This document shows, piece after piece, positions 30,001 through 54,200 of a stretch of DNA of 64,000 nt. The notes beneath the pieces were generated by a model. The model saw nothing but the letters and a program-made list of their open reading frames with translations, was not told the DNA's origin and searched no databases. This stretch comes from Patiria pectinifera (Eukaryota; Echinodermata; Asteroidea; Valvatida; Asterinidae), in contig CM057144.1 in the NCBI GenBank assembly GCA_029964075.1, positions 9,757,281-9,821,280 on the forward strand, given 5' to 3'. The translations under genes and the position numbers were made by a program. Each line of letters opens with the position of its first letter. Position 1 is the stretch's first letter.

Positions 30001-33000
30001 AGTGTCAATAGTCTGGTGGCTTGACTATGGAGAAATGTGTAGTAACTTGAGACTAGTTCCCGGTTCATGCCACATGTTTCTTAAATTCTTTTGGCATGGT
30101 TGATTGATGCAGTACTGAAGCAGTGATAGACTGGTTGTTTTAGGTGCCAGTCTATTTTCTTGAATTGCTTGTTTTCAATGCCTTAAGTTTTGGGACCCAC
30201 ATACATAGTATTGAGAGATCCAATTTTTGGGACTAGTTCTCCATATCCGATCAAATACTCCCCCTTTTTACCATATCCAATAATGGGATGTCGGTAAAAA
30301 GCAAAATCAGACATTTCAGCTTCATTTCTGAAAGTTTCTTGACATTCTGATGTCTGTCAGCCCACCACGTATCTTCATTCCTTCCACTTAGTTTGTGCGC
30401 ATGCACCAAAATCTCGGCTAATGTCAGTGACTGTTGAAATGGCAGCATTGCGGAGAGGAAAGACACACCAATTTTCATCTATAAACATCCTATTCATTTT
30501 GCTAGATGAAGTGAAATACATGCGTCTGGATGAAATTAAATTTGTTTAATATTATCTTATTCACCATATTTTTTGTCAAATTTTCAAGAAAATGTGGTTT
30601 TAGATCGTTGTTTGCTTTCCATTTCCATACAATCATCAGCAAAAGGGCCAACTTAAGTTGGGATTTTTGTAATGTTCTCCAGTTTTCCCAAACATGCCAC
30701 TTATCGCAGCATTTGAATGAGATATTAAAAAATATTATCACAGGATTTTCGAGTTATTGCGAACAGGTTTTCATTGCTTAGGTGGGTACGTTTCCGACTG
30801 TACATTTACATGTATGAACCATTCACTGTCAAAAACGATGTCACAGTGCACGGACGGCCATGTTGAGCGATCCACTGGAGCACGGGCCCGGCTTGCGTAA
30901 TGCGGAAAATCACGCTGCGCTATATGGGTCAGCGGAAAAAAAACGAATACACGTCGGCAGATACTTTGATTGGTCAGGTGACCAATCAAAGTGCCCTGTG
31001 ATTGGTCTGTCTGATGCTTGCCAGGAAACAGTCTAGCCAGAGCCATGCACAAGTCTACTTTTCCTGAATTCAAAATGGCAGCCTCAAACAAGGCGTTTGT
31101 GACAATGTTTCCCGAATTGAATGTGAAATTCCTCTTTTATTCCCAAAGGTATGTAAACCTTACCACCACCATTTGTCAGAGCTTGAATTGCACGACGGCC
31201 ACGACGGCCAGTGCCGCCGTTGCCTTCTTACTTGCCGAGGTGCCCCACAAAAAATCTCCGTCTTCACGGCCAATTGTGCCTTGCCCCATATTTACCTTGG
31301 CCGTCTTGCCCTTTTTGCAAAAACATCCATCAGCCTATAATAAAACCACTACAATCCTTGATTTCAGTTGTTTTTCCAATATTATTGACAATGTATTTTC
31401 GATGTCAAAATGGTAAAAAGACATTATTAGTAACGCAATACGGCTATGTCCGAGTAACTTATCGCCTTTTTACGGGGACTATCGAATGAACGCTGGGCAT
31501 GAAGACACAACGCAATTCAAACACGAGTCGGAAATTTAACATGTTCACGATCGCGAGAAAATGTGTTGCTCGCCATATAACCATTAGCTTGGACCCCACT
31601 ATTGCCAGACCATGTCCGAATGTTAAGAAGGCGATAAGTTGGGTCCTTGTTGATGCTGCAAAGAGTATCACGTGTAAAAGTGCTGATGCTTTGTTGGGTT
31701 AGCAGACGGAGTAATTGCAGAATACCCCGCCACGCGGAAATTACCCCCCAAAATAAATGGCTACGCAGTCGGAAAATGTTGCAGAAATGTCCAAAGTACA
31801 TGTAGATGTCGGGAATTGATACGCGAATACAATATTGAATGGGGGGCAGGGGTTAAATAAATCTAACTAGTCCAAAGTAGGTGCCAGGAAGTGGATACGC
31901 GGATATGGGGATATGGGGTGGACTTTATTTTTAGCGGAGGAAAATATTTTTGAGAACGAGGCATCCATATCCATGTTGGAAAATATCGAAGGCAGAGACA
32001 ACGTGAGTTGAATGGGGAGCAGGGAAAAGTGTCTAAGACTAAGTCCAAAGTAGGTGCTGCAGAGATGCCACCAATACATCAATAAAAAGCCTGAAGCACT
32101 ACTAAAAAACCTGAAACTACCCTTACCCCCTTCCAAAAATGTCTTTTCTGGATGCAGCTTTTATGGCGGATACCAGTTCAAGCTGGGATCACGTTTGTAA
32201 ACACATGTGCATTTCGAACGATAATAGGGAGTCGGGAACTAGCGCAACTTTTATGGCGGATACCAGTTCAAGCTGGTTCCCGATTCCCTTTTACAGTTCG
32301 AAATGCACTTGTGTTTACAAATGTGACTCATTATCATAATCGATGCATCGCCCGCATTCGGTAACGGAATCGCACTCGGGACACGGGGACCATCGAATGT
32401 ACGCTGGGCATGAAGAAGAAATTGCGTCGTTTAAACATTAACACGAGTCGGAAATTTAACGTGTTCAAGATCGCGAGGGGAGCTCTCAGAATTGAACGGG
32501 AAATTTCACTTTTCTTCCGGATCGTAAGTAAACTTCAGTACAACCATCTTAATCATCGATGTCTACTTGTTCCCTTAGGTGGCATATCTAGTAATTTGGA
32601 GGCCGTTTTGAGGGTGAAATCTGATGTTTTTTTGTTGGAAAATGTTGGTTTTTGGGACAGTGACAGGATATGTTGTCCAGCTTGCACCATTAGCTTGGAC
32701 CTTACTATCGCCAGACCATGTCTGAATGTTAAAAAGGTGATAAGTTTGGTCCAAGTTACTCGGACTAGATACGCGGATACGAGGTGGACCAAGCGTGACT
32801 CCGTATCCGCGTATCCAGATACGAGGTGGGATAGGTGAGTGGCGGGGTATTCTGCAATTGTGCCCAGCAGACTTTATAATTTATTATTCTGTTCATTGCT
32901 TTTCTGTCATGTCTGACTCTGAGACTCTTGTCCGGCATAGCTCTACTGAGTGGAGCGTTGAATTACGGGTACTCCTCCATACAAACGCTCCACCGATTTG

Positions 33001-36000
33001 CCATACTTTGGTGACACCGTCACAGTAGCATAGTCACAAACCCATGCGAGGACAAAAAGACCCCCAAAAAACGGTAAAGAGAATACAAATGAGAGAGACA
33101 GTTATCCTGGATTGATCTATACATTCTTGACATTCTATGAGACCCCTTATATTGTTCCCAAACAGCGAAAAATTTGAAAAAAAAACAGTAAAATAGTCTG
33201 AAAACTTACAGCTCAATGTGTTTGCAGGGAGGCTCAGTTCTTGAATCGACTTGTCGAATGAGGGCGTCTGACGTGACGTCACCGTCGTTGCTCGATCGCG
33301 AAGAAAAACAAGTCACACTTTATCAACGAATGTTTCGTGTAATAATACGTGCTCCGATCTGTGCCGCACCGTACCACAGTATGGGCTTTGAACACACCCA
33401 AGGAGCACGTATCATTACACGAAACAGTCGTAGATAAAGCGCGACTTGTTTTTCTTCAATCGAGCAACAACGGTGACGTCACGTCAGACGCCCTCATTCG
33501 ACAAGTCGATTCAAGAACTGAGCCTCCCTGCAAACACATTGAGCTGTAAGTTTTCAGACTATTTTGCTGTTTTTTTTCAAATTTTTCGCTGTTTGGGAAC
33601 AATATAAGGGGTCTCATGGAATGTCAAGAATGTATAGATCAATCCAGGATAACTGTCTCTCTCATTTGTATTCTCTTTACTGTTTTTTGGGGGGGTCTTT
33701 TTGTCCTCGCGTGGGTTTGTGACTATGCTACTGTGACGGTGTCACCAAAGTATGGCAAATCGGTGGAGCGTTTGTATGGAGGGGTACCCGTAATTCAACG
33801 CTCCACTCAGTAGATCTAGTCCGGCATATCATGCATTAGCCCCACTAGTGTGGCCGCGGTATGCTGCGCTGAACCTAATGCCACACACCGTGGTCCGCGC
33901 ACTACTGAGGACGTTTTCATAAAAAACTGCGGTCCGTTTCTTACATATGGTTGTATTCTATGATGTCTCATCTATCACTTCTTGGATGCTTAATAGAGAT
34001 CAGTGCACGTGGCCCCCAGACGATAAATGCATGGTACAGGAAACAGCCGCGCATTTGCAACTCGCGCCCTCGCTCGACAAGCAATTTGCATAAACGCGAC
34101 GTCACAGCTTGAAGTCATCTCTTGTCACATTCAAAATGGCTGCCATCACCAGACGTTTCACGAGTGCATATGGGCTCCAGAAAGATTCAAGAATATCTCG
34201 GAAAATGGAACATCATTACACCTAAGCATCCCAGAAGTGATAGATGAGACATCATAGAATACAACCATATGTAAGAAACGGACCGCAGTTTTTATGAAAA
34301 CGTCCTCAGTAGTGCGCGGACCACGGTGTGTGGCCTTAGGTTCAGCGCAGCATACCGACGGCCACACTAGTGGGGCTAGCCCGACTGCGTCTGGCCGTAC
34401 AGTACTATCGCAAGCTCTGTAGTACGGCCAGACGCCCGATGCTTCCACAGAGACTGAATTTTGTTGGCCGCCGATGTAGCGATTTTGCTACATCTTTCGA
34501 TCGCGATTATCTTTTCATCCAGGACACAAATTTCCAAAGTTAAGGTTCGTAGTCATAGAGCAACTCATACCTTTTCGAAAAAACGTTGTTTGGTCTCAAT
34601 ATTTTCATCCATCTGGCCACAAGACGAATTTCAGTCATCAGATTCCACAAATATCGTCCCCCATGCGATCCCCCATGCGATTTCAAAATGGCGGCCACGC
34701 TGTAGTGTATGCAATATGCAGGCGCGCCCGCGCAAACTTATGAATATGCATAAACAGTCTGTGACGTATGACCTCATGTTTTTGGACGTGCGTGCGGCGG
34801 GGCCGTACGTCCAAAAACACGAGGTCATACGTCACAGACTGTTTATGCATATTCATGAGTTTGCGCGGGCACGCCTGCATATTGCATACACCATGTACAC
34901 TACAGCGCGGCCGCCATTTTGAAATCGCATGCGGGATCGCATGGGGGACGATATTTGTCGAATCTGATGACTGAAATTCGTCTTGTGGCCAGATGGATGA
35001 AAATATTGAGACCAAACAACGTTTTTTCGAAAAGGTATGAGTTGCTCTACGACTACAAACCTTAACTTTGGAAATTTGTGTCCTGGATGAAAAGATAATC
35101 GCGATCGAAAGATGTAGCAAAATCGCTACATCGACGGCCAACAAAATTCAGTCTCTGTGGAAGCATCGGGCGTCTGGCCGTACTACAGAGCTAGCTCTAC
35201 TGAGTGGAGCGCTGAATTACGGGTACCCCTCCATACTAGCGCTCCACCGATTCACCATACTTTGGTAGCACCATCACAGTAGCATAGTCACAAACCCACG
35301 CGAGGACAAAAAGACCCCAAAAAAACGGTAAAGAGATTACAAATGAGAGAGACAGTTATCCTGGATTGATCTATACATTCTTGACATCCCATGAGACCCC
35401 TTATATTGTTCCCAAACAGCGAACATTTTGGAAAAAAACAGGAAAATAGTCTGAAAACTTACAGTTCAATGTGTTTGCATGGAGGTTCAGTTCTTGAATT
35501 AGCTTGTCGCTGAGGGCGTCTGACGTGACATCACCGTCTTTGCTCGATCGCGAAGAAAAACAAGTCGCGCTTTATCAACGACTGTTTCGTGTAATTATAC
35601 GTGCTCCGATCTGCGCCGCGCCGTACGACAGTATGGGCTTTGAACACACCCAAGGAGCACGTATTATTACACAAAACAGTCGCAGATAAAGCGCGACTTG
35701 TTTTTCTTCGCGATCGAGCAACGACGGTGACGTCACGTAAGCTGAGGGCGTCTTACGTGACGTCACCGTCGTTGCTCGATCGCGAAGAAAAACAAGTCGC
35801 GCTTTATCTGCGACTGTTTTGTGTAATAATACGTGCTCCTTGGGTGTGTTCAAAGCCCATACTGTCGTACGGCGCGGCGCAGATCGGAGCACGTATAATT
35901 ACACGAAACAGTCGTTGATAAAGCGCGACTTGTTTTTCTTCGCGATCGAGCAAAGACGGTGATGTCACGTCAGACGCCCTCAGCGACAAGCTAATTCAAG

Positions 36001-39000
36001 AACTGAACCTCCATGCAAACACATTGAACTGTAAGTTTTCAGACTATTTTCCTGTTTTTTTCCAAAATGTTCGCTGTTTGGGAACAATATAAGGGGTCTC
36101 ATGGGATGTCAAGAATGTATAGATCAATCCAGGATAACTGTCTCTCTCATTTGTAATCTCTTTACCGGTTTTTGGGGTCTTTTTGTCCTCGCGTGGGTTT
36201 TTGACTATGCTACTGTGATGGTGCTACCAAAGTATGGTGAATCGGTGGAGCGCTAGTATGGAGGGGTACCCGTAATTCAGCGCTCCACTCAGTAGAGCTA
36301 CTACAGAGCTTGCGATAGTACTGTACGGCCAGACGCAGTCGGGCTATAGTGGGGCTAGCCCCACTAGTGTGGCCGTCGGTATGCTGCGCTGAACCTCTAG
36401 AGGTTCAGCGCAGCATACCGACGGCCACACTAGTCAGCTAGTGGGGCTATAGTGGGGGTAATCCTTACTTTTAGGACACCTCTACTTTTTAGGAGTTCTG
36501 TTCAAAACTGACTTTTGCAGATGTGGAAAAAGTTCCATACTCGGATGTCAATTTATCTGCTGCCAAACATATTAATTGTCACCTCACCTTGTCATTTGAA
36601 CCAAGAGAAATCCAGGAAGCTGTGTAAAGGTGAAAATTTTTTACTCAAAATGTGTTTTTAGAGCACATTTTGGATGCATACGTCGTGCAGAACTAACTTC
36701 AAGCAGCCGGTCAAAACTGATTGTAGTGGTTGAAAAGACAGCGGTACGTTATACACGTGACATCAACAACCATGACGTCGCATGAGCCTGCCAATGATAG
36801 TGCAATACGTCATTATGAATATTTATTTTCTCATGAATATTTAGTTTATTTCAATGGATACTTCAAATACGTCCAAAGATTGATTATTGCAACAGCGATC
36901 GTGCGCGGCCTAGCGGTTAAGAGTCTCATGTATCAACCAAGCGTCAGAGGTTCGAATCCCGATGAAGTAACTGACTGATTAATAAATAGAAATTAAGGAA
37001 AGGAGAGGGTGAGAGTAGAGGAGGGAAAGTGGAGGAATAACCATAAAAGATGTAACTTTTTGCGCTAAAAATTTAATTGAAAAAAGTGACGTCCGAGTAC
37101 GGAAATTTTTCCGCAGATGTCTGTCCAGTACCAAAGTGACTTTTGCAGGCTAAAGCAGTCTTTAGAAGTCAAGAAGGTGGCATTGCCAATTGTTCAGATG
37201 TGCCAAGAAGTATCAGAATGCCAATTTTGAGTGTCATTTAGTCAACTGTTTTGGTGAGTCTTTCCCTTCCTATATAGGAACGGGGTCCTAAAAGTAAGGA
37301 TTACCATAGTGGGGCTAATCTAGTCCGAGTAACTTGGACCCAACTTATCGCCTTTTTTAATATTTGGACATGGTCTGGCGATAGTAAGGTCCAAGCTAAT
37401 ACCGCGACCTGGACAACATCATCCTGTCACTGTCCCAAAAACCAACATTTTCCAACAAAAAACATCAGATTTCACCTTCAAAACGGCCTCCAAATGACTA
37501 GATATGCCACCTGAGGTACAAGTAGACATCGATAATTAAGATGGTTGTACTGAAGTTTACTTACGATCCGGAAAAAAGTGAAATTTTCCGTTCATTTCGG
37601 AGAGCTCCCCTCGCGATCTTGAACACGTTAAATTTCCGATCGTGTTTAATGTTTGAACGACGCGATTTCTTCTACATGCCCAGCGTACATTCGATGGTCC
37701 CCGTATCCAGAGTGCGATTTATGATAATGAGTCACGTTTGTAAACACATACATGTGTATTTCGAACTGTAAAAGGGAATCGGGAACCAGCTTGAACTGGT
37801 ACCCGCCATAAAAGCTGCGCTAGTTCCCGACTCCCTATTATCGTTTGAAATGCACATGTGTTTACAAACGTGATCCAGTCTACTCATTATCATAATCGAT
37901 GCATCGCGCGCGCTCGGTAACGGAATCGCAGTCTGGATACGGGGACCATCGAATGTACGCTGGGCATGTAGAAGAAATCGCGTCGTTCAAACAAATTTTA
38001 CGTGTTCTAGATCGCGAGGGGAGCTCTCCGAAATGAACGGAAAATTTCACTTTTTTCCGGATCGTAAGTAAACTTCAGTACAACCATCTTAATTATCGAT
38101 GTCTACTTGTACCTCAGGTGGCATACAGTCAATTGACCGGTTCCGCAATTTGACCGGTTCCGCAATTTCGGAAAACTAGCTCTCGTTTTCAGGAAGACAA
38201 AAACGCCAAGGACTTAAACTTTGGTACCGATGGAAAGGTTATTCAATCTACTTTTCAAAAATGGTTTTAGTTTTAGGATACTCACTTGCATTTAAAAATA
38301 AATCCCCTACGACTGTCACTTGCCGTTAACGAACTGCCGAAATGGAACGCGCACGGAAGCGTGATTTCATGTTTGTCGGCCTGCTACACGATTGTTCAGG
38401 GGAATTAAATCATGGCCATAGATGCAAATTGTTCGGAAATTATTCATTATTCCACCATAAAAATATAAGATTTGAAGTCTTTGAATTTTTTTTTCTATAC
38501 CCACCAGAGTAACTGCTGGTCGTTTGGCCGGTTCCGCAAACGCATTCATACTGCCTATACAATACACTGGCCATGGTGTGACTGTATTAACCAGTGCTGC
38601 TATTGATGACAAGTATTGTTGATGGCGGCCCCCTAGCGCGGCACACATTATTTATTTTGGCATGAATCCTTTTTTTTTTTTTTACAACTTACAAGTTACA
38701 AAGAAATTGAGAATTTCTATTAATCCTTGTTTAAAAATGTCGAATTTGATGATCATTTCTGGGTGTTCAGTGCAAAATTGAAAACGAAATTGAAACAAGA
38801 TGATTTTGTTTCTGTCCAGCTTCCCGGACAGCATGGACAGCACTGCAGGTTTTGGATAAAAAAATGTGGACTTCAAAATTTAAAATACAAAAATCTTTCT
38901 ATAGTGAGCAAAATTCCCACTAAACGTTTTTCCTTTGCTCTAAAAAAATTCACCCCATACTTGGTGTTGAAGCGGTTGTGCCTCAGGGGTTTGGATTCAT

Positions 39001-41503
39001 TTTAGAGTTACAACTCTCCACATCCAGGGTGCATGAGTCAGCCCAGGCTAGGAGGTGAGGTTTGTGGTGTTTGTGGTGTTTCTAACCCAAAGGACATTCC
39101 CAGTAATTTAGTAAATTCAAAATTATCCTTTTTCGGTGGGTCCTAACCTTACTCTTTACCCTTTAAAACAAAAAGAAATATTTCATAATGAAGACCAGTC
39201 TCTCGTCAGTACAGAGACACAAATTTTGATTGTTTTCTTGGAGCACAAAATTTGTCAAATACTCTAAACCATTTCTCATTTTTGTCTCAACTTGGTCATA
39301 AACTAAATGATTTATATAAAATTTCTGTTTCATACAGACAATGCCAAAGACAAAGAAGAAGATTACGCCAGCCTCCTGATAGGCCATAAGAGGCCATCAG
39401 CACATCTTTTTCAGTTTAACCTGTGAAAGGTCAAGAAGAAGTTGAATATTAGTGAAAGTACTTGTAGCCGTGTGTCTTCATCACCATTCCTTTGAATTAA
39501 TTTATTTATGTGACAAGTTCTTTTTTTGTATAGTGCTGGCTTCTGGACTCTGGAGTGCTTAAATTATTTGTGTATAACTATTAAACAGACATGCAGGTGC
39601 CATAAAGGCAATAAATTTAAAGGCGTTACGTACATTTTTATTAACCAGTACATGTAAAAGAGAAGTGAGGTGTTTTAAAAACTATGTTACTTTGCATGAA
39701 AAACCTACAGAACATGTCTATTTCTGTGATTCATCACCATTTATTTATATGACAGGTATAATTTTGGATTTAAAAGGGGGAGCTTCTTGAGTGCTTTAGT
39801 TTTGTATTACATTTACATTTTACACATGCTGGTATCACATGTTAATATATTGAAAGGGTTATCGGGATGTACATGATGAATGTGTTGACATTTTCTTTTA
39901 AAAGCATCACCGAACGGTAGATGAGGTTTGCTAATACAGTTGCCCAAGCATGATACACGTACAAAGTTAATATGTGCAACAACGTATGAGGAGTAACTGA
40001 ACCCACTCTTTAACTTTCCAACGACATTATAATTAGAAATTGCCATTGCTATGAAACAGCCATAGGATTTATGACATTTTTAACAATTTGTTTTAATTTG
40101 TTTGTGAAATTTAATTTGAATGTGAAACAATATGTATGTGGCCTGTATGTATCTGGCCTGCTGAGGCCTGTTCCCCCTCCCCTCCCGGCCCCCAGGTTCC
40201 CCCTACTGGATGTTGGTGCACACAAAATTAAGCATATTGTGTTTTTACCCTGAACAAATTGAAACACTCCCCCACCCCCCACAAAAAAGTAAAATGAAAA
40301 AAGGGGAGGAATAATCAAAAGTAAATAAATAATAATAATTAAATAAACAAATAATATTAATAAACAGTGCTCCCCTGCAGACAATGATTCAGTTCCAATT
40401 CATCCAGCCATGCAGACACTTCCTTAAGTGTCATAGGAATTAAAATGATCCTGGAGAAAATATTAATTCAAATTCATAAATAGCTGGTCTGTGCTTATGT
40501 GAGAAAAAAAACAACCAACTGGAGCAATTCGGTACAAGGTTTGTGTCTGGTTCTATCCAAAGTCAGAGTGTGTCTAAATAAGAATAAGACAACAACAAAA
40601 AAGAAAAATATTAGTGATTGCAAGATGATTGACAGAATGCACAAAAAGCTAGAAAGTCATTTAATTGGATTATTATTATTATTATTCTATCATTTCTGGT
40701 AATGAAACCAAGGATTCCTCAAAAGCGCCCTAGGCACTGTAGCTCGCAAGCCTGAAGAAACCTGTGGAGAGAAGACGATGAGAAAAAATTACAGATTGAA
40801 GCAAGTAAAATAATTATATTAACATAAACTAAGATCCAACGAACCATAACTTCATGGAGTTACATTTTGTAAATTTGGACGTATTATAATGTGCAGACCT
40901 TGGCTCATTCACAGGGAAATATAATCCAAATCTTTTCTTGGCTGGTTTGGGGGCAAAAACGATCTAGATTTGGCCAGTAAACAAGGAATATTTTCACTCC
41001 AGTCTCACAGAGGGCGCCGTTTGCGAAACCGGAAAACATTTGCGGAACCGGTCAAAGCACCGACCTCTACAAAATGTCCTGGCAAATTTCTCTTTCAAAC
41101 GATCGCAGAAAACTATTCATATCATGAAGTAGGTGAGTAATTTGCGCATATTTATAGATAGGTAGCTTCCTGTGAAAGCGCGTTTTTTCGCCACAAGACG
41201 CTTCAGACGATTTGCGATTGCGGAACCGGTCAAACGACTGTATCTAGTCATTTGGAGGCCGTTTTGATGGTGAAATCTGATGTTTTTTGTTGAAAAATTT
41301 TGGTTTTTGGGACAGTGACAGGATGATGTTGTCCAGGTCGCGGTATTAGCTTGGACCTTACTATCGCCAGACCATGTCCAAATGTTAAAAAAGGCGATAA
41401 GTTGGGTCCAAGTTACTCGGACTAGGGCTAATCATGCATGTCCGGAAACCGGGCAAGGCCTGTGAATAAATGTAAACTCACCACTCTCGTAATTTTCTTC
41501 CAT
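12069..41503 (-). CDS. IWS1: IWS1, Spt6-interacting elongation factor (15 exons, complete)
   Basis: IWS1 binds Spt6 on elongating RNA polymerase II and links transcription to mRNA processing, export and histone methylation. Exons, 5' to 3' on the minus strand: 41503-41482, 28589-28456, 26491-25489, 24867-24426, 23938-23869, 22658-22610, 21280-21073, 19600-19453, 18464-18382, 16240-16111, 15829-15712, 15289-15175, 14743-14681, 13285-13174, 12197-12069. The join is in frame through 2826 nt (941 residues; human IWS1 has 819). Exon 1 encodes MEENYESG and exon 2 continues [12 protein letters not shown], matching the conserved N terminus. Exons 3-4 are a long acidic, disordered region. Then come [15 protein letters not shown] (exon 5), a KKKR basic patch, [12 protein letters not shown] and the TFIIS N-terminal-like domain ([12 protein letters not shown] to [16 protein letters not shown] to NDWSRPIFG). 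The C-terminal tail is [18 protein letters not shown] and SIEGRKVAL, then stop. The exon 3 acceptor has a weak pyrimidine tract. Intron 1 is 12.9 kb and full of transposons. Confidence 0.95.
13676..13855. mobile_element. 180-bp foldback with CAAGTCYATCAC word arrays
   Basis: In an IWS1 intron. The left end is CAGGGATGTAGCCAAGTC and continues with several copies of CAAGTCCATCACAAGTCC. The right end carries the inverse words (GGACTTGTGATTGACTTGTG) and finishes CTACATCCCTG. CAGGG...CCCTG ends recall hAT-type termini, but I could not find a clean 8-bp target duplication. Relatives share the word arrays at 58170-58640 and 61503-61945. Confidence 0.6.
14105..14128. repeat. 24-bp perfect palindrome
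   Basis: ACGGTGCGTCTT and its exact inverse meet with no spacer, flanked by TTTCC on the left and GGAAA on the right. The palindrome at 18097-18130 has the same outer TTTCC/GGAAA setting, so both may be remnant centres of foldback elements. Confidence 0.7.
15934..16038. repeat. GGAGGATTTG tandem array
   Basis: In the IWS1 intron between the exons at 15712-15829 and 16111-16240. Inverse words (TCCTCCCAAATCTCC) at the left edge are followed by three ~30-bp tandem units built from GGAGGATTTGGGAGGATTTGG. It belongs with the word-array elements at 4985 and 54618. It yields spurious open frames on both strands. Confidence 0.7.
18058..18296. repeat. Dispersed repeat containing a 34-bp perfect palindrome
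   Basis: Copy of the repeat at 2110-2310. At 18097-18130 it holds TTTCCAACGCTGATCGG joined directly to its exact inverse. The flanking words (CAGTATTTGAAAAAAGCCAG, GATTTCTGCAAATGTTG) match the other copy. It lies in an IWS1 intron and has no coding signal. Confidence 0.6.
19096..19337. mobile_element. MITE with 25-bp perfect terminal inverted repeats
   Basis: About 242 bp in an IWS1 intron, bounded by CAGATTCTTCCAAAAGCACC(AAATT) and its exact inverse. The interior contains GCGGCCCCGTGGGGCGCC and has no open frame of note. The GCACCAAA word recurs in the elements at 22826, 44075, 62699 and 63500; whether this means kinship is unclear. Confidence 0.7.
19764..19884. mobile_element. Foldback with ATCCACCAAAATCC words
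   Basis: AGTACTAGATCCACCAAAATCC at the left faces GGTGGATTTTGATGGACTTGGTACT at the right, with further AAATCCACCA words inside. Loose copies of the word continue to about 20065. This has the same design as the other word-array elements, with a different word. It is in an IWS1 intron. Confidence 0.55.
22194..22356. mobile_element. Foldback with telomere-like ends
   Basis: Inverted ends TTAACCCTAACGATCCCC and CCTAGGGGTTAGGGTTAA enclose about 125 bp in an IWS1 intron. The ends resemble two units of CCCTAA telomere repeat but do not continue as an array, so this is a short inverted-repeat element and not an interstitial telomere. Confidence 0.5.
22826..23090. repeat. Dispersed repeat, copy 1 (pair with 63500-63690)
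   Basis: Shares with 63500-63690 the ordered segments TCGGTCTCTGGTCAGC, CGTCGATTT(T/C)AATCATGCGCGTC, TTTTTTCCAAAATGTT and GAATGGGAAATTGCACCAAG, then GCAAATGATCGAAAGCACCAAGG. Found in an IWS1 intron and again beyond the last visible UBXN7 exon. No protein coding. Confidence 0.75.
23361..23640. repeat. Two-copy tandem repeat with TGACCTTTGACAT words
   Basis: Two diverged ~150-bp units, each with TGACCTTTGACAT, TATGAAGGT, GTTGCATCTA, CCAATTGGACTT and GAGACAA/C. TGACCT half-sites recur five or six times. It resembles a repeat that is common in marine invertebrate genomes. It is intronic in IWS1. Confidence 0.6.
24541..24770 (-). repeat. IWS1: Coding 21-bp minisatellite in IWS1 exon 4
   Basis: On the minus strand this part of exon 4 is a tandem array of a 21-bp unit encoding seven residues of the form GEELAEE, with about eleven diverged units. 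It gives an extended Glu-rich, possibly helical region in the IWS1 acidic domain. The unit is a multiple of three, so copy-number change would not shift the frame. The plus-strand open frames here are antisense shadows. Confidence 0.85.
28456..28589 (-). CDS. IWS1: IWS1 exon 2
   Basis: 134 nt; acceptor TGTGCAG and donor GTAAAC on the minus strand. It encodes [20 protein letters not shown] and continues acidic to EDLE. The GG-TPVQDE stretch matches the conserved IWS1 N terminus. Its 2-nt start phase fits exactly the single G left by exon 1 at 41482. It then joins in phase 0 to the 1-kb acidic exon 3. Confidence 0.9.
30963..30992. promoter_or_regulatory. 30-bp palindrome with paired CCAAT boxes
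   Basis: ACTTTGATTGGTCA, a GG spacer, then the exact inverse; a further GATTGGTC follows at about 31002. Paired inverted CCAAT boxes occur in promoters, and GC-rich sequence and an ATG in good context (31075) lie nearby. However, the sequence around 31110-31170 also resembles the element family at 32209. It may be a cryptic promoter or just repeat structure. Confidence 0.3.
31452..31651. mobile_element. Family A foldback, internally deleted copy
   Basis: It starts with GTCCGAGTAACTTATCGCC and ends with GGCGATAAGTTGGGTCC, the two termini of family A, but only about 200 bp apart. The inside keeps ATCGAATGAACGCTGGGCAT and TTAGCTTGGACC words seen in longer copies. The full copy is at 37321-41424; half copies are at 32140-32768 and 50333-50885. 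Confidence 0.7.
31708..32865. mobile_element. Family F element with AGCAGAC flanks, carrying a family A half copy
   Basis: Left end GGAGTAATTGCAGAATACC and right end GGGTATTCTGCAATTGTGCCC are inverted, with further shared CCCGCCAC. Both sides are flanked by AGCAGAC (31701-31707 and 32866-32872), a likely 7-bp target duplication. The interior repeats TCCAAAGTAGGTGC and GGATACGCGGATA. The segment 32140-32768 is a family A right half ending CTCGGACTA. Confidence 0.65.
32938..33818. mobile_element. Family B foldback, copy 1 (881 bp)
   Basis: Almost the whole element is a palindrome. Left end TAGCTCTACTGAGTGGAGCG and right end CGCTCCACTCAGTAGATCTA. The flanks are GTCCGGCA at 32930-32937 and 33819-33826, an 8-bp target duplication. 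Each arm carries TGACGTCAC next to GCTCGATCG and the word ACAAGTCGCGCTTTATC. No transposase is encoded, so it would be non-autonomous. Confidence 0.85.
34377..36346. mobile_element. Family C foldback, split by a family B element
   Basis: Ends TAGCCCGACTGCG / CGCAGTCGGGCTA with 9-bp flanks TAGTGGGGC at 34368-34376 and 36347-36355. The arms are near-identical over about 400 bp and meet around 34797. Beyond the tip, GTCTGGCCGTAC and GTACGGCCAGAC form a subterminal hairpin. Mirror-image 153-residue open frames inside are arm sequence. Family B copy 2 sits in its right arm. Confidence 0.85.
35192..36300. mobile_element. Family B foldback, copy 2 (1.1 kb, double palindrome)
   Basis: Ends TAGCTCTACTGAG / CTCAGTAGAGCTA, flanked by CTACAGAGC at 35183-35191 and 36301-36309. 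The uninterrupted site is visible in the left arm of family C (34416-34424 region), which confirms the insertion. The element is palindromic about 35745, and each half contains a further internal palindrome like the whole of copy 1. It therefore looks like a head-to-head dimer. Confidence 0.88.
36457..37305. mobile_element. Family E element carrying a tRNA-like core
   Basis: Ends GGTAATCCTTACTTTTAGGA / TCCTAAAAGTAAGGATTACC, flanked by ATAGTGGG at 36449-36456 and 37306-37313 (8 bp). An inner inverted pair (AAAAGTTCCATACTCGG and CCGAGTACGGAAATTTTT) marks a core. A second, reversed copy of the core lies at 48100-48700. Confidence 0.8.
36901..36972 (+). repeat. tRNA-like sequence inside family E
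   Basis: GGCCTAGCGGTTAAGAGTC resembles a tRNA D arm and A box, and GAGGTTCGAATCCC is a good B box and T loop. The acceptor stem does not pair. The same sequence is present, reversed, at about 48253-48330 inside the second copy of family E, so it is part of the element and not a free tRNA gene. Confidence 0.6.
37321..41424. mobile_element. Family A foldback, full copy with a 3.1-kb insert
   Basis: Ends TAGTCCGAGTAACTTGG / AAGTTACTCGGACTA with 9-bp flanks GGGCTAATC at 37312-37320 and 41425-41433. The arms are near-identical and meet around 37813. The right arm is broken at 38126-41240 by another element. Without the insert this copy would be about 1 kb. Arm words include ATCGCGAGGGGAGCTCTC and CCGGATCGTAAGTAAAC. 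Confidence 0.88.
38126..41240. mobile_element. CAGTC-ended element with TA duplication (Tc1/mariner or pogo type)
   Basis: Inserted in the right arm of family A. Left end CAGTCAATTGACCGGTTCCG, right end (inverse) CAGTCGTTTGACCGGTTCCG, flanked by TA on both sides (38124-38125, 41241-41242). Copies without it read GGCATATCTAG, proving the empty site. TTGACCGGTTCCGCAA-like motifs also occur near both ends (38144-38166, 38520-38538, 41039-41056). TA duplication plus CAGT ends fit the Tc1/mariner/pogo group. No long transposase frame is visible, so it is probably non-autonomous. Confidence 0.82.
41482..41503 (-). CDS. IWS1: IWS1 exon 1 (initiator, 22 nt)
   Basis: On the minus strand the ATG at 41503-41501 begins MEENYES plus one G, followed by a strong GTGAGT donor. 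The G completes a Gly codon with exon 2, giving [13 protein letters not shown]; the human protein has an equivalent short acidic/Tyr start before SDDGG. This agreement in sequence, phase and strand places the start here, 12.9 kb upstream of exon 2. Confidence 0.85.
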
Positions 41504-45223: not shown

Positions 45224-48200
45224 ATGGCGGCCAGCGGGAAGTCGAAAAGTCCTGCGATGGACGGACTTGTCAAGCAGTTTGCTGCTATCACGGGTACGAT
45301 TTCCACATATTGTGAACGAATAGGTGTTGATTGACACTGCATGGAGTTATTGCAGAATACCCTACAACTGGAAAATAACCCCCCAAAAATTAGACTTCGG
45401 GTAGGCCTACCGGTACAGCGAAGGGTGTCGATCCAACTCGGACCCAAACCAAGTCGGACCCATGCCAACTCGGACCCATGCCAACTCGGACCCACTACCA
45501 ACTCGGACCCACGCCAACTCGGACCCACTACCAACTCGGACCCACTACCAACTCGGACCCACTACCAACTCGGACCCACAACCAACTCGGACCCACTACC
45601 AACTCGGACCCATGCATGACCAACTCGGACCCATCGTTAACAATCATTCGACAGCGTTTTCAATCATTCGACAATTTCATAAAGTCTGTCCACTTATCTG
45701 TGTTAAGCATAAATTTTCATTGTAGTTGTCAGGTAAAATATCTGTATTGCAGCAGTTTGTCATTGTAAAGTGCATTGATATGCTCTTATTATTTGTTTTC
45801 ATTGAAACATATTGCGCTTTAACCAAAAGTAATTAAAATTAAAGTTTAACCAGTTATTCATTTTCATATTTGACATCGTTCACGCCATCTTGCTCAATTT
45901 AACAGCAATTTAATTCATTTTTAATTCATTTTTTCATAAATTCAGAACAGATCTTCCGTAGAAAAATAAAACTGGAAAGTATGACATTGAAACATAAATA
46001 CTTTCAAACATGACATTATTAATTCAATAAATATAAGTGAACATTATAAGTCATTAAATAAAATAAATAAGGTCTAAAAACGAAGTCTATTCTCTCTACA
46101 TGTACATGTATTTAAAAAAAAACAACACATAAACACCATTGCATACACTGCTAGAAAAACGAAGGTTCCATATGAAACCAAAAAGGTTAATTAAAAAAGT
46201 ATAAAAAGTTAAACAGATTCGTAAAAAAAAACAATTAAAAGAAGCTAACAATTACATGAAATGAAAGGCCTATTTCAATTTAATAACTTCCTCACTGACC
46301 AAAATGACATTTCCAAGTACCCCAAAATAATTAAAATTAAACAGCGTTCTATTAAAAAAAAAAAATCGTATACACTTCAAGGAAAACGAAGGTTCCATAA
46401 TAAATGAAGTATTAAAGGTCAAATTCGCATTTTTTTCGGGTAATCGATAGAGCTTGGAAATACATGTCGGGTTCCATAATATATTTATAAAAAAACAGTT
46501 ACCAAAAAGTATGAAAAAATAAACAATGTCGTTAAAAAAATGTCGTTTAATTTGGTTTATATTATTTGGCACACACACAAAAAGCAGATGAAAAAGGAAA
46601 ACATTGCACATAGATATCCATTTCTTCATGTGAATCAGTAATAAGAGAGCAAAACCAACGAAGTATGATCAAACAACAAAACAAAAAGCCCCATTCTGAC
46701 CAATATAATTACAGAATATCTTCACTATATTAGCACTGTTACATTAAGATGACCTATAAATATAATCTCTGAAACTAATGATACAGTCATTGTTGGGTCC
46801 GAGTTGGTCGTGCTTGGGTCCGAGTTGGTAGTGGGTCCGAGTTGGTCTTGGGTCCGAGTTGGTAGTGGGTCCGAGTTGGTCTTGGGTCCGAGTTGGTAGT
46901 GGGTCCGAGTTGGTAGTGGGTCCGACTTGGCGTGGGTCCGAGTTGGCGTGGGTCCGAGTTGGCATGGGTCCGACTTGGTTTGGGTCCGAGTTGACCTGAT
47001 ACCCAGCGAAGCAGGTCGTCATGGTCGTTTCGTACCCAAGTCTAGTCGTTTCGTACCTGTTGTGCCCATTCTTGAAAATCACGCATTCTCGAAAATGAGC
47101 GCTCATTCTTAAGAATGAGCGCCCATTCTTGAAAATGAGCGCTCATTCTTGAAAATGGTGTACCTTGAAAATGAGCGCTCATTCTTAAGATTGGGTGGGA
47201 ATACCACGTGCACAATTTATGAATTTTGCCCAATCTTAACAAACATTGCACGACATAATTATGTTAAATGAATTGTATAGCGGTTAAAAGGGAAACAATT
47301 CATATAAAGAGGAAAGAAAATGTTCCATGCTTCTGTACTCGTATAACTACGATAATTTGAATCAAATTAAACCTGTTATTATTGCTTTTTCCTGCCTACT
47401 TATGGGAAGTTTTGTAATAACGGAGGACTGGGAACTAGTCTGGGAAGTGCTTTGTTTAGGCTAGACAAGTACAAGTCCCTGTATGTATCATATGCGTGCC
47501 ACGAAAAAAAAAAACGATGTCCAGAAGCTGCCAAAATTGCTCTTTTGACTAGATACAATCCAGCTCTGCGACGTTATGGTGGGGTGTGAACAATAAATTG
47601 GTGGCAATTTAAATGGGAAATAGCATTAGCACTATGGGATGTCGCAGCATTCATTCTCATTCTTCACATTCTTCATTCTTACGCCCCCCCCCCTCTTTTA
47701 TTATCCCAAAAATCTGAATTCTTTCTTCTTATTTTTTCCCCTGGTCCCCTCCCCCAATACGCGTACACTTTTCATATCCACTCTACGTAGTTTTCAGCGC
47801 CTTGCGTTGCAACAGTGTAATTATTAAGAATCAGTGAACGAGGATTCAGCTAGACTTGCCAAGCGCAGCCGGTGCTCGGCATCGACAAGACCGTTATCTT
47901 GTCGCACATTCTCGAGAATGTGCGCTCAATCTGGAAGAGTTATTTTTTGCCAAGATTGAGCAAGGATACAGTTGCACATTCTCGAAAATGTGCTTCCCCA
48001 TTTTCGAGAATGCGTGATTTTCAAGAATGGGCACAACATCCCCAAGTCGTTTCGTACCCAAGCCGTTTCGTACCCAGTCAATTATGATGCTCAAAGGAGA
48101 TTAAGGAAAAAGTTCCGTACTCGTTCGCCACTTTTTTCAATTAATTTTCTAGCGCCAAAAGTTACATCTTTTATGGTTATTCCTCCCACTTTCCCTCCTC

Positions 48201-51200
48201 TACTCTCACCCTCTCCTTTCCTTAATTTCTATTTATTAATCAGCATGATCAGTCAGTTACTTCATCGAGATTCGAACCTCTGACGCTTGCTTGATACACA
48301 AGACTCTTAACCACTAGGCCGCGCACGATCGCTGTTGCAATAATCAATCTTTGGACGTATTTGAAGTATCCATTGAAATAAACTAAATATTCATGAGAAA
48401 ATAAATATTCATAATGACGTATTGCACTATCATTGGCCGGCTCATGCGACGTCATGGTTGTCGATGTCATGCGTATAACGTACCGCTGTCTTTCAGCCAC
48501 TACAATCAGTTTTGACCGGCTGCTTCAAGTTAGTTCTGCACGACGTGTGCATCCAAAATGTGCTCTAAAAACACATTTTGCCTAATTTTTTTTCGCATTT
48601 ACACAGCTTCCTGGATTCCTCTTGGTTGAAATCACAAGGTGAGGTGAAAATTGATATGTTTGGCGGCAGTTAAAGTGGCGATCGAGTATGGACATTTTCC
48701 CGAGATGAAGCCAGTCATGCAAACCCGCTCTTGTGACGTCACCGACGCACGGCATCATTCATAGAGATGTATCAAGAATGTGGGCCCTCTAGCGGCGAAA
48801 AATCTTTTGGAAAACACATTTGGAAATTGGAAATCATCTTCCGATTCGCCCTTAAAGATTGTTTTCCCTTTTTGAATTTTTAAAACTCATATTGAAAGAA
48901 TATAACACTGGAATAACACAATACTGTCAATAGGCCTAAACAAATAAACCAATTTAAAATCTATCGTATGGGGATCTACATAGTTTTTTTTTCATTTCAA
49001 AGGAAAAGCCTTATCCCCTTGAAAACCCGGGTAACTGGAGCATATATATGCATCAGTGCATTGACGTATGAACCTCCTGGACTTGTGTTTTTTAAAAGTT
49101 TTTTTTTTAAGGTTTCAAATTTGCTTGTCATTTTGATTCCGTTACAGTTATGGCGTTCCAATTTTCAGATATGACACAAACTACAAAACTAGTGAATTGC
49201 ATTTTATTACTCACAACAGTTTTTTGAATTGAAATGAAAACTTGATAATTAAAGAAGAGTGAAAACATTAACACCAGGGTAGATTCAAACATTGAACATT
49301 TTAAAAACAATTGAATTGCATTTTATGACTTACAATAGTTTTTTAATTAAAGTCAAAACTTGATAATTATAGAAGACGGAAGACGTTTACGTAAATTCAC
49401 CATGAAATTTAATAACAAAAAGTACAATTTCGAAAAAAAAAGCAACCAAAGAAAATCACGCTACAATATAGAAGAACAACATCAACGATCATAACCCAAG
49501 CTCAAAAAACCCACAAACCGCAGGGTAGATAAAATCCAAGCTCCAAGAAGAAGAAAAAACCATGCAGTGGCAGGTTAAAAAAAATCAGACAAAACAAACC
49601 GCAACGCTGTCAACACAAGTCCCGTGAACCACCAAGAGTGATTGACAGTAGCATTGTTGTTCAATAGAAAAGGATTTGGAACCCTTTGTCACGTGTGCAA
49701 TGAATCCTGGGTGCGAACGACCAGGGTACGAAACGACCAGGGTACGAAACGAGTTGGGTGCGAAACGACCGACATTCCCAGTACAGGGCCACTCCATTCT
49801 AGTCGTGTTCTACTTAGCTTGAGTAACTCCAGCTGACATGCTCATATCCATTCACATGTAACGCTGGAGACATAACCTGTTCGTTAGAATGTGGTAGCAA
49901 GAGACCCTAAAAAAATGGCCTCTCAAAAATTGTCCATTTTCACCTCTAATATCCCACCCCAGATTTCATTTACATACCTCATACATTCAGCCATTCACGA
50001 AGCCTAATGATCGACTTGAAACAGACCCCCAAAAAAACAAATGCGAAAATTTTTGATGATTTCGGTGGCTTGTCCGTAAAAAAAAGCCAGTTCCAATGGT
50101 TGTCGTCCATTTTGTTTTGTTAATTATGTAAATGTATGCGTCACGTGATGACATCGAAAAAAACTGCGCGTGCGATGTATGTGGGTAACACACCGCTTTC
50201 AGGCGCCGCAAGTGAGTTCAATTTTCGTCTGGTGCGTTGTTGTCTGAAAGCATTCTCGTTGTCTTGCTTTCCGTGACAACGCACCAGACCAAAGCTGAAC
50301 TCACTTGCGGCGCCTGAAAGCGGTGTGGTACCCGAACGATAATAGGGGGTCCGGAACTAGGGCAGCTTTTATGGACGGATACCAGTTCAAGCTGGTTCCT
50401 GATTCCCTTTTACCGTTCGAAATGCACTTGTGTTTACTAACGCTATCCAGTCTACTCATTGTCATAACCGATGCATCGCGCGCGCTCGGTAACGGAATCG
50501 CACTCGGGATACGGGAACCATCGAATGTACACTGGGAATGAAGACCACATCGCGTCGTTCAAACATTAACACGAATCGGAAATTTAACGTGTTCATGATC
50601 GCGAGGGGAGCTCTCGGAATTGAACGGGAAATTTCACTTTCCATCTGGATCGTAAGTAAACTTCAGTTCAACCATCTTTATGTCTACTTGTACCTCAGTT
50701 GGCGTATCTAGTAATTTGGAGGCCGTTTTGAAGGTGAAATCTGATGTTTTTTGTTGGAAAATGTTGGTTTTTGGAACAGTGACAGAATTGTGTTGTCCAG
50801 CTCGCACTATTAGCTTGGACCCCACTATCGCCAGACCATGTCCGAATGTTAAAAAGGCGATAAGTTGGGTCCAAGTTACTCGGACTAGTGATAAACGCAG
50901 ATAATAATTTGGAATCGTACTTATGATCCGGACATCAGAAGTGCCCGGAGCGTCAGTGCGATACCAAATTATCTGCAGCGCTTATCAAGTGGTAAATCAC
51001 ATGCATCAGGAGGAGGTTGCAGGACGTCGAGATCTTGCCAGATTTTACCTCGAATATCGTTTAAATGCCAGATTTGGCGTAAAAGCAGATTTCAACATGT
51101 TCAAGAAAGCTTGATATGTGAATACTTATCACATGGTATAAAGGCAATGTTCCGTCTTTGTCATGGAAGGACGCTTGGTTCGAACATGTACAAGAGCGTG

Positions 51201-54200
51201 GCGTAGTTTACAAGCCACGTTCACGGGTCTAGTCGTGTTCCTGTTGTGCGCTTTTTTGTGATTTGCGCAATCATAAGAATGCGTATGCACATTCTTATGA
51301 TTGCGCAACTGGATCCTTGCGCAATCTTCGCAAAAAAAACTCTTCCAGATTGAGCGCACATTCTTAAGAATGCGCGACAAGATAATGGTCTTGTCGCTGC
51401 CGAGCACCGGCTGCGCTTGGCAAGTCTAGCTGCATCCTCATTCACTGATTCTTAACAATTATACTGTTTGCAACGCAAGGTCACTTACATGTACCTAGGA
51501 AAGATTTAACGATGAAAAGGATACACGCATTCGGGGGACCGGGAAAAAATAAGAAACATAATAATAGTGTAGTGGAAAGAATTCTGATTTTTGGGTAAAC
51601 AATTAAAAGGGGGGGGCGTAAGAATGAAGAATGTGAAGAATGAGTCAAAAGAGCAATTTTGGCAGCTTCTGGACATCGATTTTTGTGTGACATGCATATG
51701 ATACGTACAGGGACTTGTAACTTGTCTAGCCTAAACGAAACACTTCCCAGACTAGTTCCCAGTCCTCCGTTATTACAAAACTTCCCATAGTGGGCAGGAA
51801 AAACCCAATAATAACAGGTTTAATTTGATTCAAATTATCATAGTTATACGAGTACAGAAGCATAGATCATTTTCTTTCCTCATTATATGAATTATTTCCC
51901 CTTTAATCGCTATACATTTCATTTAACATAATTATGCCGTGCAGTGTTTGTTAAGATTGCGCAAAATTTTTAAGTTGCGCACGTGATATTCCCATGCAAT
52001 CTTAAGAATAAGCGCTCATTCTTCAGATTGCGTGCTCATTCTTAAGAATGTGTGCTCATTCTTAAGAATGTGCGCTCATTCTTAAGATTGCGTGATTTGC
52101 AAGAAAGCGCACAACATTCTATTGATGACTTCATGCTCATCCACTCCGCATCCGCGCATCCAAGACATCCCAAGCCGTCTCACTCGGTATATATAGTACG
52201 TACTTGTCAATAATTCACTCTCTATAGGGCCCTCTATAGGTGATATCCCTATACATACATGCACATTTCAGGGACAAAAGAAATCCCTGCATTAAATCCA
52301 CTAGTACACTGCAGGAACAAAAAACTCTGCATTAATCCACTAGTACAATGCATAGGGATATCACATTTTGCAACATGTATGCCAAATTTTAGATGAGCTA
52401 GAAACCAAACCAAAAATATTATACCTCCAATTTTTGGATATTTTGTAGAAAACATGTTGAGGTATAATCTTCATCAAAGTTCGTCTCAGGGTCATGTGAT
52501 CCACAAGGTCAAATTCAAGTTCAAAGTAAAGGTCAAAAGGTCATCATACTTCAAAGTACTCTGACATGAAAAATAATGGATTCCTTATGATGTTACCTTT
52601 CCAAAGAAACCAAGATTAACAAATTTGGCCCACAGGTTATGGAAATATGTTCATTTGAAAATTGGTGGCCATGCCCATTTTGACCAAAATTGACAAACAA
52701 TGGTGAGCAGTAGCTCGAAAAGCGTTCATCGGATGGCGCTAAAACTTAAAATTTCAGCTTTTTCAGCCTAAATTACCCCATATACCAAATATTAACCAAT
52801 TTGAAAGGGGTGGGGTTTAAACTTTCATTTTTTGGGGGGCTATTTGACACGGAATGACCCAGTTCTGAAACGTGGCGGTATTTAAAAAAAGAAAAAAAAA
52901 AGAGAACTGCTCTTGCGATTATCTCAAAGCTTGCTTGGTGAAAACTGTGAAAAAATTATTCAAGTAAGGAAAATGTAAATAAAAGTAGTGCTCACCAGTA
53001 GTTTTTGGCCGAATGATTCAACCTACCAGTAGGCAACTTCAAAATTGTCAGTAATCATGACCTATGATGTGGTTTTCATTTGTCAAGGGGCTACTGAAGA
53101 TGTTGGCCGTCGCTTGCTGGAGGTGTGCAACGGAAACCTGGAGATGGCCATTGGCATGCAGCTTGAGGGCGCTGTTGAGACGGCTGAAGCAGGGGCGTCA
53201 GCCGGACCATCAGGAGCTTCAGCGGGCCCGTCCGGGGGCGGCGCTGTGCCAGAAATACCACCTGAGTAAGGGCAGCTTTTGGAAATGTACTCATCCCACA
53301 TATTTAATCATGTTAAGACTACTCTGTCATAGGGTGAAAGATGACGCAAGACTGCTCTGACAAAAAATGTACTTGCACAATGTTGAACTGTAACTTAACT
53401 TACATCAAATGTGACTTAGCACAGTTGTTATTCGGTAAATTTCTGATGTACAGTTAATCACTTTGCTTTACTTTTTACTTCTGTTGAATCAGTGATAGCG
53501 TCCGAGCACCTATACCTCAGAAGAGAGAAATTATGGTTCCAGAAGTCCCAACTTTTGGTAAGTGCCAAGATAGTAGTTAGAATATGAGTAATTGAGAGTC
53601 AAAATTTGAGTTGGAATGAAAAACTCCAAATCAGAGTTATTTTTGCGCACACATTTACATGACATATTGTAAAAAAAGGGTTCTGAAATCAAGCCTTGCC
53701 AAAGATGAGTTTATGAGTGTCATCGATATTATTGAAGACAATATACAAATATTAATAATGATAATGTACAACATGTTGGCAAAAAGTGCATTTGTATACA
53801 TGTCTCTGTGCTTTTCCTACCTTATGAATTAAGTATTTGGGGCATTTCTATGAATTTAGGGTTTTAAGTTGTGACATTTTTTTGTTCCTGTTACCTTGGT
53901 ACTTTGTGAGTTACCGGTACCATTCAAGTATCATTAAGAAGGACTTCAAACAATTTTTCATTTGTTGGGTACTTAGTTTTCTATTCATAATCATTCTTGG
54001 AGGACGACCGCAGTGACGAGTACATCAGAATTATATCATCACAGATGTCAGATGTAACAGGGACAGAAAAAACGTAGACCCCGAATTTGTAGACTGACCC
54101 ATTTATGTGCCTGTATGCATTCATCATAAGCCAATCTATGTTGTCATTTTATCAAATGGCTAATTTAAGCAAAAAAGTATAGGACATATAATCATGTCAT

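What the first reader, a model, noticed from the sequence alone, without database searches (positions are those of the whole stretch)
32930..41439. Nest of foldback DNA element families with TAG ends and 8-9 bp target duplications
Five insertions can be excised on paper from matching flanks: B1 (GTCCGGCA), D (ATCATGCAT), C (TAGTGGGGC), B2 (CTACAGAGC) and A (GGGCTAATC). A sixth, E, has GGTAATCC ends and ATAGTGGG flanks. The terminal repeats of A, B, C and D differ in sequence, yet all begin TAG, have long palindromic arms, lack coding sequence and duplicate 8-9 bp. This suggests one transposase lineage mobilising many foldback families. The 8-9 bp duplications and long arms recall Mutator-like or hAT groups, but the ends fit neither clearly.
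Basis: partly seen in the sequence, partly recalled or inferred. Interest (0 to 1): 0.85.

Follow-up and report, generated by a model that had tools for sequence, protein, structure and literature searches.

The report
Many foldback transposons sharing one mechanism
This stretch of an animal-like genome is a pile-up of palindromic jumping-DNA families in which no genes were found; they insert with the same 9-base signature, often exactly beside one another, which suggests that one enzyme (not yet found) moves them all.

Summary
All six named insertions excise with the stated 8-9 bp duplications, and the nest is deeper: D2 (94 bp) and F (3.1 kb), and probably M (588 bp). C, D2, E and A sit within about 10 bp of D1's right end. 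In the 613.5 Mb genome the A, B, C and D termini occur 1331, 828, 670 and 1025 times, with 0 hits for each reversed pattern. Three further TA-starting families (J, K, L) appeared; 22 of 24 TA-starting rows of a de novo scan of 41 loci have exactly 9 bp. In all seven families TA is followed by a 16-17-nt imperfect dyad, strong in some and weak in others. Different families often abut with exactly 9 bp between them: 39 of 73 for B, 24 of 66 for D, 18 (plus 16 at 10 bp) of 63 for A. Three neighbour pairs readable in full each share one 9-mer in three copies. This supports one integration machinery, most likely Mutator-like (MULE). E differs (8 bp, GGT ends). No coding TAG-ended copy was found; the MULE elements whose ends were read have other ends. 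A new variant of foldback/MULE non-autonomous elements.

The parts
32938..33818 (.). B1, 881-bp foldback element, TAG...CTA; flanking repeat GTCCGGCA at 32930-32937 and 33819-33826 (8 bp, the only TAG copy of this nest without 9)
33837..41430 (.). D1, foldback element (542 bp without inserts) holding C, D2, E and A2 at its right end; repeat ATCATGCAT at 33828-33836 and 41431-41439
34377..36346 (.). C, foldback (852 bp without B2); repeat TAGTGGGGC at 34368-34376 and 36347-36355
35192..36300 (.). B2, foldback inside C's right arm; repeat CTACAGAGC at 35183-35191 and 36301-36309; arms 98.7% identical
36356..36449 (.). D2, 94-bp near-palindrome of family D; left repeat TAGTGGGGC 36347-36355, right copy interrupted by E (36450-36456; whole again at 37307-37315)
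36457..37305 (.). E, GGTAATCC...GGATTACC, a different family; repeat ATAGTGGG at 36449-36456 and 37306-37313
   Evidence: second copy in L075 with ACAAATTT
36525..37112 (.). M, probable element inside E, GGAAAAA ends, repeat GCAGATGT at 36517-36524 and 37113-37120; related sequence in reverse orientation at 48248-48701
37321..41424 (.). A2, foldback (987 bp without F); repeat GGGCTAATC at 37312-37320 and 41425-41433
38126..41240 (.). F, 3115-bp insertion in A2 with CAGTC ends and TA duplication (38124-38125, 41241-41242); no coding domain in the frames tested

Best explanation
The TAG-ended elements A, B, C and D here, and J, K and L elsewhere in the genome, are non-autonomous foldback transposons cut and pasted in trans by one lineage of DDE transposase, most likely Mutator-like (MULE). 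Shown: they start TA followed by a 16-17-nt imperfect dyad; those measured here (B1, B2, C, A2) are wholly self-inverted and D1 partly; they duplicate 9 bp (the spacing tests suggest also 10); their 9-mers favour G first and C last; and different families stand side by side with exactly 9 bp between them, sharing one 9-mer. Inferred: the transposase binds the dyad as a dimer next to the cleavage point and makes a 9-bp staggered cut. Also inferred: because an inserted element leaves CTA|G and C|TAG junctions that fit the weak target consensus C-W-W-G(N7)C-W-W-G, its flank becomes a better target than naive DNA, and nests grow. The transposase gene itself has not been found.
For: Genome-wide termini with zero reversed-pattern hits. 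9-bp duplications in 22 of 24 TA-starting rows of the de novo scan; for B pairings, 8 of 23 exact, 4 with one mismatch, 2 with two. The dyad is best at offset 2 of eight offsets in 7 of 7 families; A, B, C, D give p 0.0016, 0.0012, 0.034 and 0.0034, and J, K, L, found after the idea was noted, give 0.094, 0.085 and 0.014. Spacing between neighbours: B gap 9 in 39 of 73 read places (28 of 58 distinct gap sequences, p 1e-13), 33 of those 39 followed by a family hexamer against 12 of 34 at other gaps; the reversed pattern gave 8 places against 75. D gap 9 in 24 of 66 (p 9e-9). A: gap 9 in 18 of 63 (p 3e-5) and gap 10 in 16 (p 2.5e-9 for both, a grouping made after seeing the counts), outside one amplified region. 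Three copies of one 9-mer around two families: L015 (J, B), L026 with L027 (B, J), and window C and D2. MULEs with long open frames are present. Muta1 precedent (PMC5225508, passages).
Against: No TAG-ended copy with a transposase gene: the three long B pairs read (1.9-3.3 kb) show no similarity to 10 MULE proteins of this genome, and none of the 30 MULE loci (1.5 kb flanks only) or eight 8-10 kb stretches is bounded by TAG ends. The MULE elements whose ends were read have GG- or GC-starting ends with 16-bp tandem arrays and, in one clear case, 8 bp, not TA and 9. The dyad is weak in C, J and K and could be shared ancestry rather than function. J and K termini mostly resemble the others no better than shuffles. 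Gap 7 is also raised for D (12 of 66) and unexplained. A and D spacings could not be collapsed for duplicated places. A mini-A in L042 shows no matching flanks. A looser pairing of ends gave 43 pairings, 22 with exact 9 bp; the others include nested and spurious pairings. The target consensus is weak.
Confidence: 0.68

Rival explanations
1. The TAG families are moved by the PHD-type MULE group found in this genome (L042/L045, L051 and the related L055 and L071 frames), which would make both 8-bp insertions at tandem-array ends and 9-bp insertions at TA-dyad ends.
For: Same genome; two near-identical copies of one lineage (99% DNA over 2.1 kb). The window itself holds their derivatives: H (49178-49770) is 94.8% identical to the flank of L055, and G has a related array unit. 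The half-site ACTCGGAC of G's unit also occurs in A's terminus (by inspection).
Against: Their ends start GG or GC, not TA. The clear duplication is 8 bp (L072 TGCTGAAA; G CAGCGAAG, read by eye). Dyads at five of their ends are at most marginal (p 0.04-0.48).
Confidence: 0.2
2. The TAG families are unrelated MITE-like families that each follow their own transposase and only resemble one another by convergence; adjacency reflects shared hot spots such as open chromatin.
For: J and K termini align poorly with B and C, and K with D. Hot-spot insertion is common among DNA transposons (general knowledge).
Against: A chromatin hot spot does not give neighbours exactly 9 bp apart with the same 9-mer three times. 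All seven families share the offset of the dyad.
Confidence: 0.08
3. Neighbouring pairs arose by composite transposition or segmental duplication of a preformed two-element unit rather than by a second insertion at the same 9-mer.
For: Some pairs recur with the same 9-mer at more than one place, e.g. GTCGGGGAC twice and GGCTACATG three times, so some copies are duplicates of one event; A on C1 below 3.2 Mb looks like one amplified set.
Against: 28 distinct 9-mers among the 39 gap-9 B neighbours. In the three pairs read in full the inner 9-mer equals both outer copies, which composite movement would not give.
Confidence: 0.12
4. hAT-type transposons with unusual 9-bp duplications.
Against: 9 bp, not 8, in 22 of 24 rows, with a 9-10 bp peak in the spacing tests; hAT is fixed at 8 bp (recalled). 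No hAT gene search was made.
Confidence: 0.05

Closest known systems
Muta1 and other Aedes aegypti MULEs (type-2 foldback; PMC5225508, passages read)
   Same: 8 or 9 bp duplications; long inverted repeats; imperfect palindromic terminal motif; many non-autonomous derivatives
   Different: Muta1's motif is 10 bp and followed by 12-bp tandem repeats; TAG families have a 16-17-nt dyad after TA, no short tandem array filling the arms in the window copies, nearly whole-length palindromes, and no known coding copy
Tm1 Mutator/foldback family of root-knot nematodes (PMC3169594, passages read)
   Same: mostly 9-bp duplications (8-10), foldback structure, a Phantom/Mutator-like transposase in the coding copy, no clear target consensus
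   Different: Tm1 ends are asymmetric 7-bp motifs plus about 14-bp tandem repeats, like G and the PHD-type MULEs here rather than the TAG families
Rehavkus (PMC6446971 and PMC10218199, passages read)
   Same: 9 bp duplication in the described group; PHD finger plus MULE-related transposase and minisatellite or satellite repeats near the ends resemble L045 and L051 of this genome
   Different: the PHD-type MULEs here show 8 bp in the clear case; TAG families have no minisatellite and no linked PHD-MULE gene
Sea-urchin TU, Drosophila FB/NOF and Galileo foldback elements (recalled; Galileo and Tetris papers seen only in the listing)
   Same: long inverted arms, foldback behaviour
   Different: duplication lengths and transposases differ (recalled); no sequence comparison was made

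Membership tests
Mutator-like elements (MULE) | target duplication of 8-11 bp, usually 9 | tested here: met
   22 of 24 TA-starting rows 9 bp; spacing peaks at 9, for A 9-10; range from PMC6446971 passages
Mutator-like elements (MULE) | long terminal inverted repeats | tested here: met
   B1, B2, C and A2 100% self-inverted without inserts, D1 58%
Mutator-like elements (MULE) | MULE DDE transposase encoded by an element with the same ends | tested here: inconclusive
Foldback (type-2) elements | element consists largely of inverted arms able to fold back | tested here: met
Foldback (type-2) elements | short tandem repeats inside the arms | tested here: not met
   Tandem Repeats Finder lists no short-unit array filling the arms of the window's TAG elements (only a 232-bp double unit in B2 and a 12-bp doublet in C); such arrays occur in G and the PHD-type MULEs
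hAT | 8-bp target duplication (recalled) | tested here: not met
   among the TAG copies of the nest B1 alone is 8 bp
Merlin | 8-9 bp duplication and IS1595-type transposase (recalled) | not tested
   the family search did not complete
P element / Galileo | 7-8 bp target duplication (recalled) | tested here: not met
Rehavkus (for the PHD-type MULEs only) | PHD finger plus MULE catalytic domain | tested here: met
   L045: MULE 1e-14, PHD 2.3e-4; L051: MULE 4.9e-11, PHD 6.9e-5; the PHD scores are 2.4 and 0.8 bits below Pfam's cut-off; L055 and L071 gave no PHD row
Rehavkus (for the PHD-type MULEs only) | 9-bp duplication | tested here: not met
   L072 8 bp TGCTGAAA; L073 no clean repeat (read by eye; two copies only)

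The most novel reading that the evidence does not exclude
A guild of at least seven foldback families shares one unrecognised transposase whose ends are TA plus a 16-17-nt dyad and whose preferred target, CWWG-N7-CWWG, is mimicked by its own inserted ends. Each insertion thus creates the next target, and nests build up of different families that share a single 9-mer.
Probability: 0.25. Interest if true: 0.72.

Novelty: new variant of a known kind. Interest (0 to 1): 0.56.

Why it matters
If right, thousands of non-autonomous elements in one genome that look like unrelated families are parasites of one enzyme, and the exact reuse of a 9-mer beside an existing copy gives a simple, testable rule for how transposon nests grow. 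It also shows that neighbour spacing can reveal which families share a transposase when no coding copy is known.

Tried and rejected
Looking for a coding TAG-ended copy: three long B pairs (L039-L041), 30 MULE loci and eight 8-10 kb stretches gave none. L042 has a mini-A beside, not around, its MULE. L076/L077 MULEs have a GGGGCC left end and 16-bp arrays, so they do not look like the partner. A unifying idea that PHD-type MULE ends carry the same dyad was tested on five ends and is at most marginal (p 0.04-0.48). A Merlin family search did not complete; no hAT or P search was made. Three literature searches aimed at insertions sharing a target found: none, none, 46 papers of which 12 were listed; of those I opened passages of PMC12368964 only, which did not concern target duplications. 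That is not evidence that the phenomenon is unprinted. Other searches: 31 papers, 15 listed; 8; 5; 6; 5. No tRNA gene was found by ARAGORN; Rfam gave one tRNA match at 58333-58405, outside the nest.

Full report
What is there. The window lies at C16:9757281-9821280 of an unnamed 613.5 Mb, 1020-contig genome. I re-derived every boundary by computation. A blind scan for an exact flank repeat with matching inverted termini finds the same coordinates for B1, C, B2, E and A2, along with many rows inside the palindromic arms; it misses D1 and D2, whose ends are interrupted. Ten Markov-shuffled windows gave no hit at 8 or 9 bp. Four insertions within about 10 bp of one element end is the oddity that led to the genome-wide tests.

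Genome-wide families. Termini allowing one mismatch occur 647+684 times for A, 414+414 for B, 336+334 for C and 513+512 for D, with no match of any reversed control pattern. B exists as about 880-bp foldbacks and as 74-94-bp minis; C also as 98 bp. In the first 38 loci fetched for B, 8 of 23 pairings have an exact 9-bp flank repeat, 4 have one mismatch and 2 have two; the other 9 include compound or mispaired ends, copies without a match, and B1 itself. Three longer B copies (1.9, 2.2 and 3.3 kb) also have exact 9 bp. A de novo scan of the 41 loci then in hand, which looked for any terminus with an exact 8-10 bp flank repeat, gave 34 rows; 24 begin TA, and 22 of those have 9 bp. One of the two others is B1, the other a low-complexity match. 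These rows add families J (TAGACCCGTGAACGTGG), K (TAGCTGGAGTTACCCAGC) and L (TACTCCTAGAACTATG), the last including a 54-bp near-perfect palindrome at L019:1585-1638. A looser pairing run gave 43 pairings, 22 with exact 9 bp; the rest include nested and spurious pairings. One mini-A in L042 has no matching flanks.

A shared terminal design. A to D start TA followed by a 16-17-nt imperfect dyad. With offset and length fixed, shuffles give p 0.0016 (A), 0.0012 (B), 0.034 (C) and 0.0034 (D). J, K and L were found after the idea was noted and test it: 0.094, 0.085 and 0.014. Offset 2 is the best of eight offsets in 7 of 7 families. Terminal sequences of A, B, C and D are alike beyond shuffles in 5 of 6 pairs at p below 0.04, uncorrected (A-B is not); A-L and D-J are too, while most other pairs with J, K or L are not. 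Some of the dyad signal may therefore be shared ancestry.

Target reuse. If one machinery moves them all and reuses targets, neighbours should stand exactly 9 bp apart. For the B right end followed within 5-14 bp by TAGNNC, 75 places were found (8 for the reversed pattern) and 73 could be read: 39 have gap 9, and 28 of 58 distinct gap sequences (p 1e-13). Of the 39, 33 continue with a hexamer of a known family, against 12 of 34 at all other gaps, 8 of these at gap 10. D: 66 places (0 for the reversed pattern), 24 at gap 9 (p 9e-9), with an unexplained second group of 12 at gap 7. A: 100 of 114 places were listed (0 for the reversed pattern); 37 lie on C1 below 3.2 Mb and look like one amplified set (32 at gap 9, 5 at gap 7), and were set aside; of the remaining 63, 18 have gap 9 (p 3e-5) and 16 gap 10 (p 2.5e-9 for both together, a grouping made after seeing the counts). 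For A and D the letters were not shown (one A place excepted), so duplicated places could not be collapsed. In the three pairs readable in full (L015 J and B; L026/L027 B and J; window C and D2) the same 9-mer stands three times. Pooled targets (52 distinct, symmetrised) favour G first and C last, 56 of 104 half-sites. For the flanks I took 31 sites, dropped 9 that abut another element and added D1's own site; at these 23 (two of which, L005 and L006, still lie within about 15 bp of a B end) the consensus is weak: G at 1 in 21 of 46 half-sites, C at -3 in 18 of 46, A or T at -2 in 35 of 46. An inserted element leaves CTA|G or C|TAG, which fits this; that this is why flanks are reused is inference.

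Which enzyme. The genome holds at least 30 MULE-domain places. Long open frames combine an N-terminal PHD-like finger with a MULE domain in L045 and L051 (L042 is 99% identical to L045). The related L055 frame (about 50% identical) gave no PHD row, and L071 gave a FLYWCH row below cut-off. Elements around L045, L051 and L055 carry 16-bp tandem arrays; those of L045 have asymmetric outer motifs and, in the clear case, an 8-bp duplication. The window's own G (45433-46993) and H (right end near 49770) resemble that group; H is 94.8% identical over 595 bp to the flank of L055. None of these is bounded by TAG ends as far as read, and the long B copies contain no similarity to 10 MULE proteins. The partner of the TAG families is therefore not identified. 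A MULE remains most likely because of the 9-10 bp signature, the long inverted arms and the precedent of Muta1, an active mosquito MULE with 8-9 bp duplications, an imperfect palindromic terminal motif and foldback structure (PMC5225508, passages). Tm1 (PMC3169594, passages) is a nematode foldback family with mostly 9-bp duplications and a Mutator-type transposase. Rehavkus (PMC6446971, PMC10218199, passages) resembles the PHD-type MULEs here but is described with 9 bp.

Verdict. The exact sharing of one 9-mer by different families is the most interesting result.

Noticed in passing
45433-46993: G: foldback with 17-bp tandem arms (CCAACTCGGACCCACTA unit), ends GGTGTCGATC / GGTATCAGGTC, 8-bp flank repeat CAGCGAAG (by eye); resembles ends of this genome's PHD-type MULE transposons.
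   Followed up: partly
about 47022-49770: H: shares 595 bp (49178-49770, 94.8%) with the flank of the MULE at L055; seems interrupted by an element with TGTTGTGC ends.
   Followed up: partly
47059-52110: Nested inverted repeats with TGTTGTGC ends and 20-bp tandem units (47067-47186 and 52000-52094).
   Followed up: no
about 32154-32767 and 50360-50887: Two further partial copies of family A, each ending GTTACTCGGACTA (right ends; left limits approximate).
   Followed up: no
G000:C1 0.14-3.08 Mb: 37 of 100 listed A junctions cluster here with only two gap lengths (9 and 7); three neighbouring spacings are near 25 kb, suggesting an amplified unit containing A.
   Followed up: partly
35192-36300: B2 looks like a doubled B: its arms (98.7% identical) each contain a further inverted repeat, as if one half of a B1-like element had been copied back on itself.
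   Followed up: no
34377-36346 and L041:61-2086: B sits in family C at nearly the same 9-mer of C's arm (CTACAGAGC in the window; GCTCTGTAC in L041), perhaps independently.
   Followed up: partly
L072, L073 (C19, C4): Two dispersed PHD-type MULE copies 98-100% identical over the shared pieces, with long open frames, so this lineage probably moved recently.
   Followed up: partly
58333-58405: Rfam tRNA match, 37.1 bits, not reported by ARAGORN.
   Followed up: no
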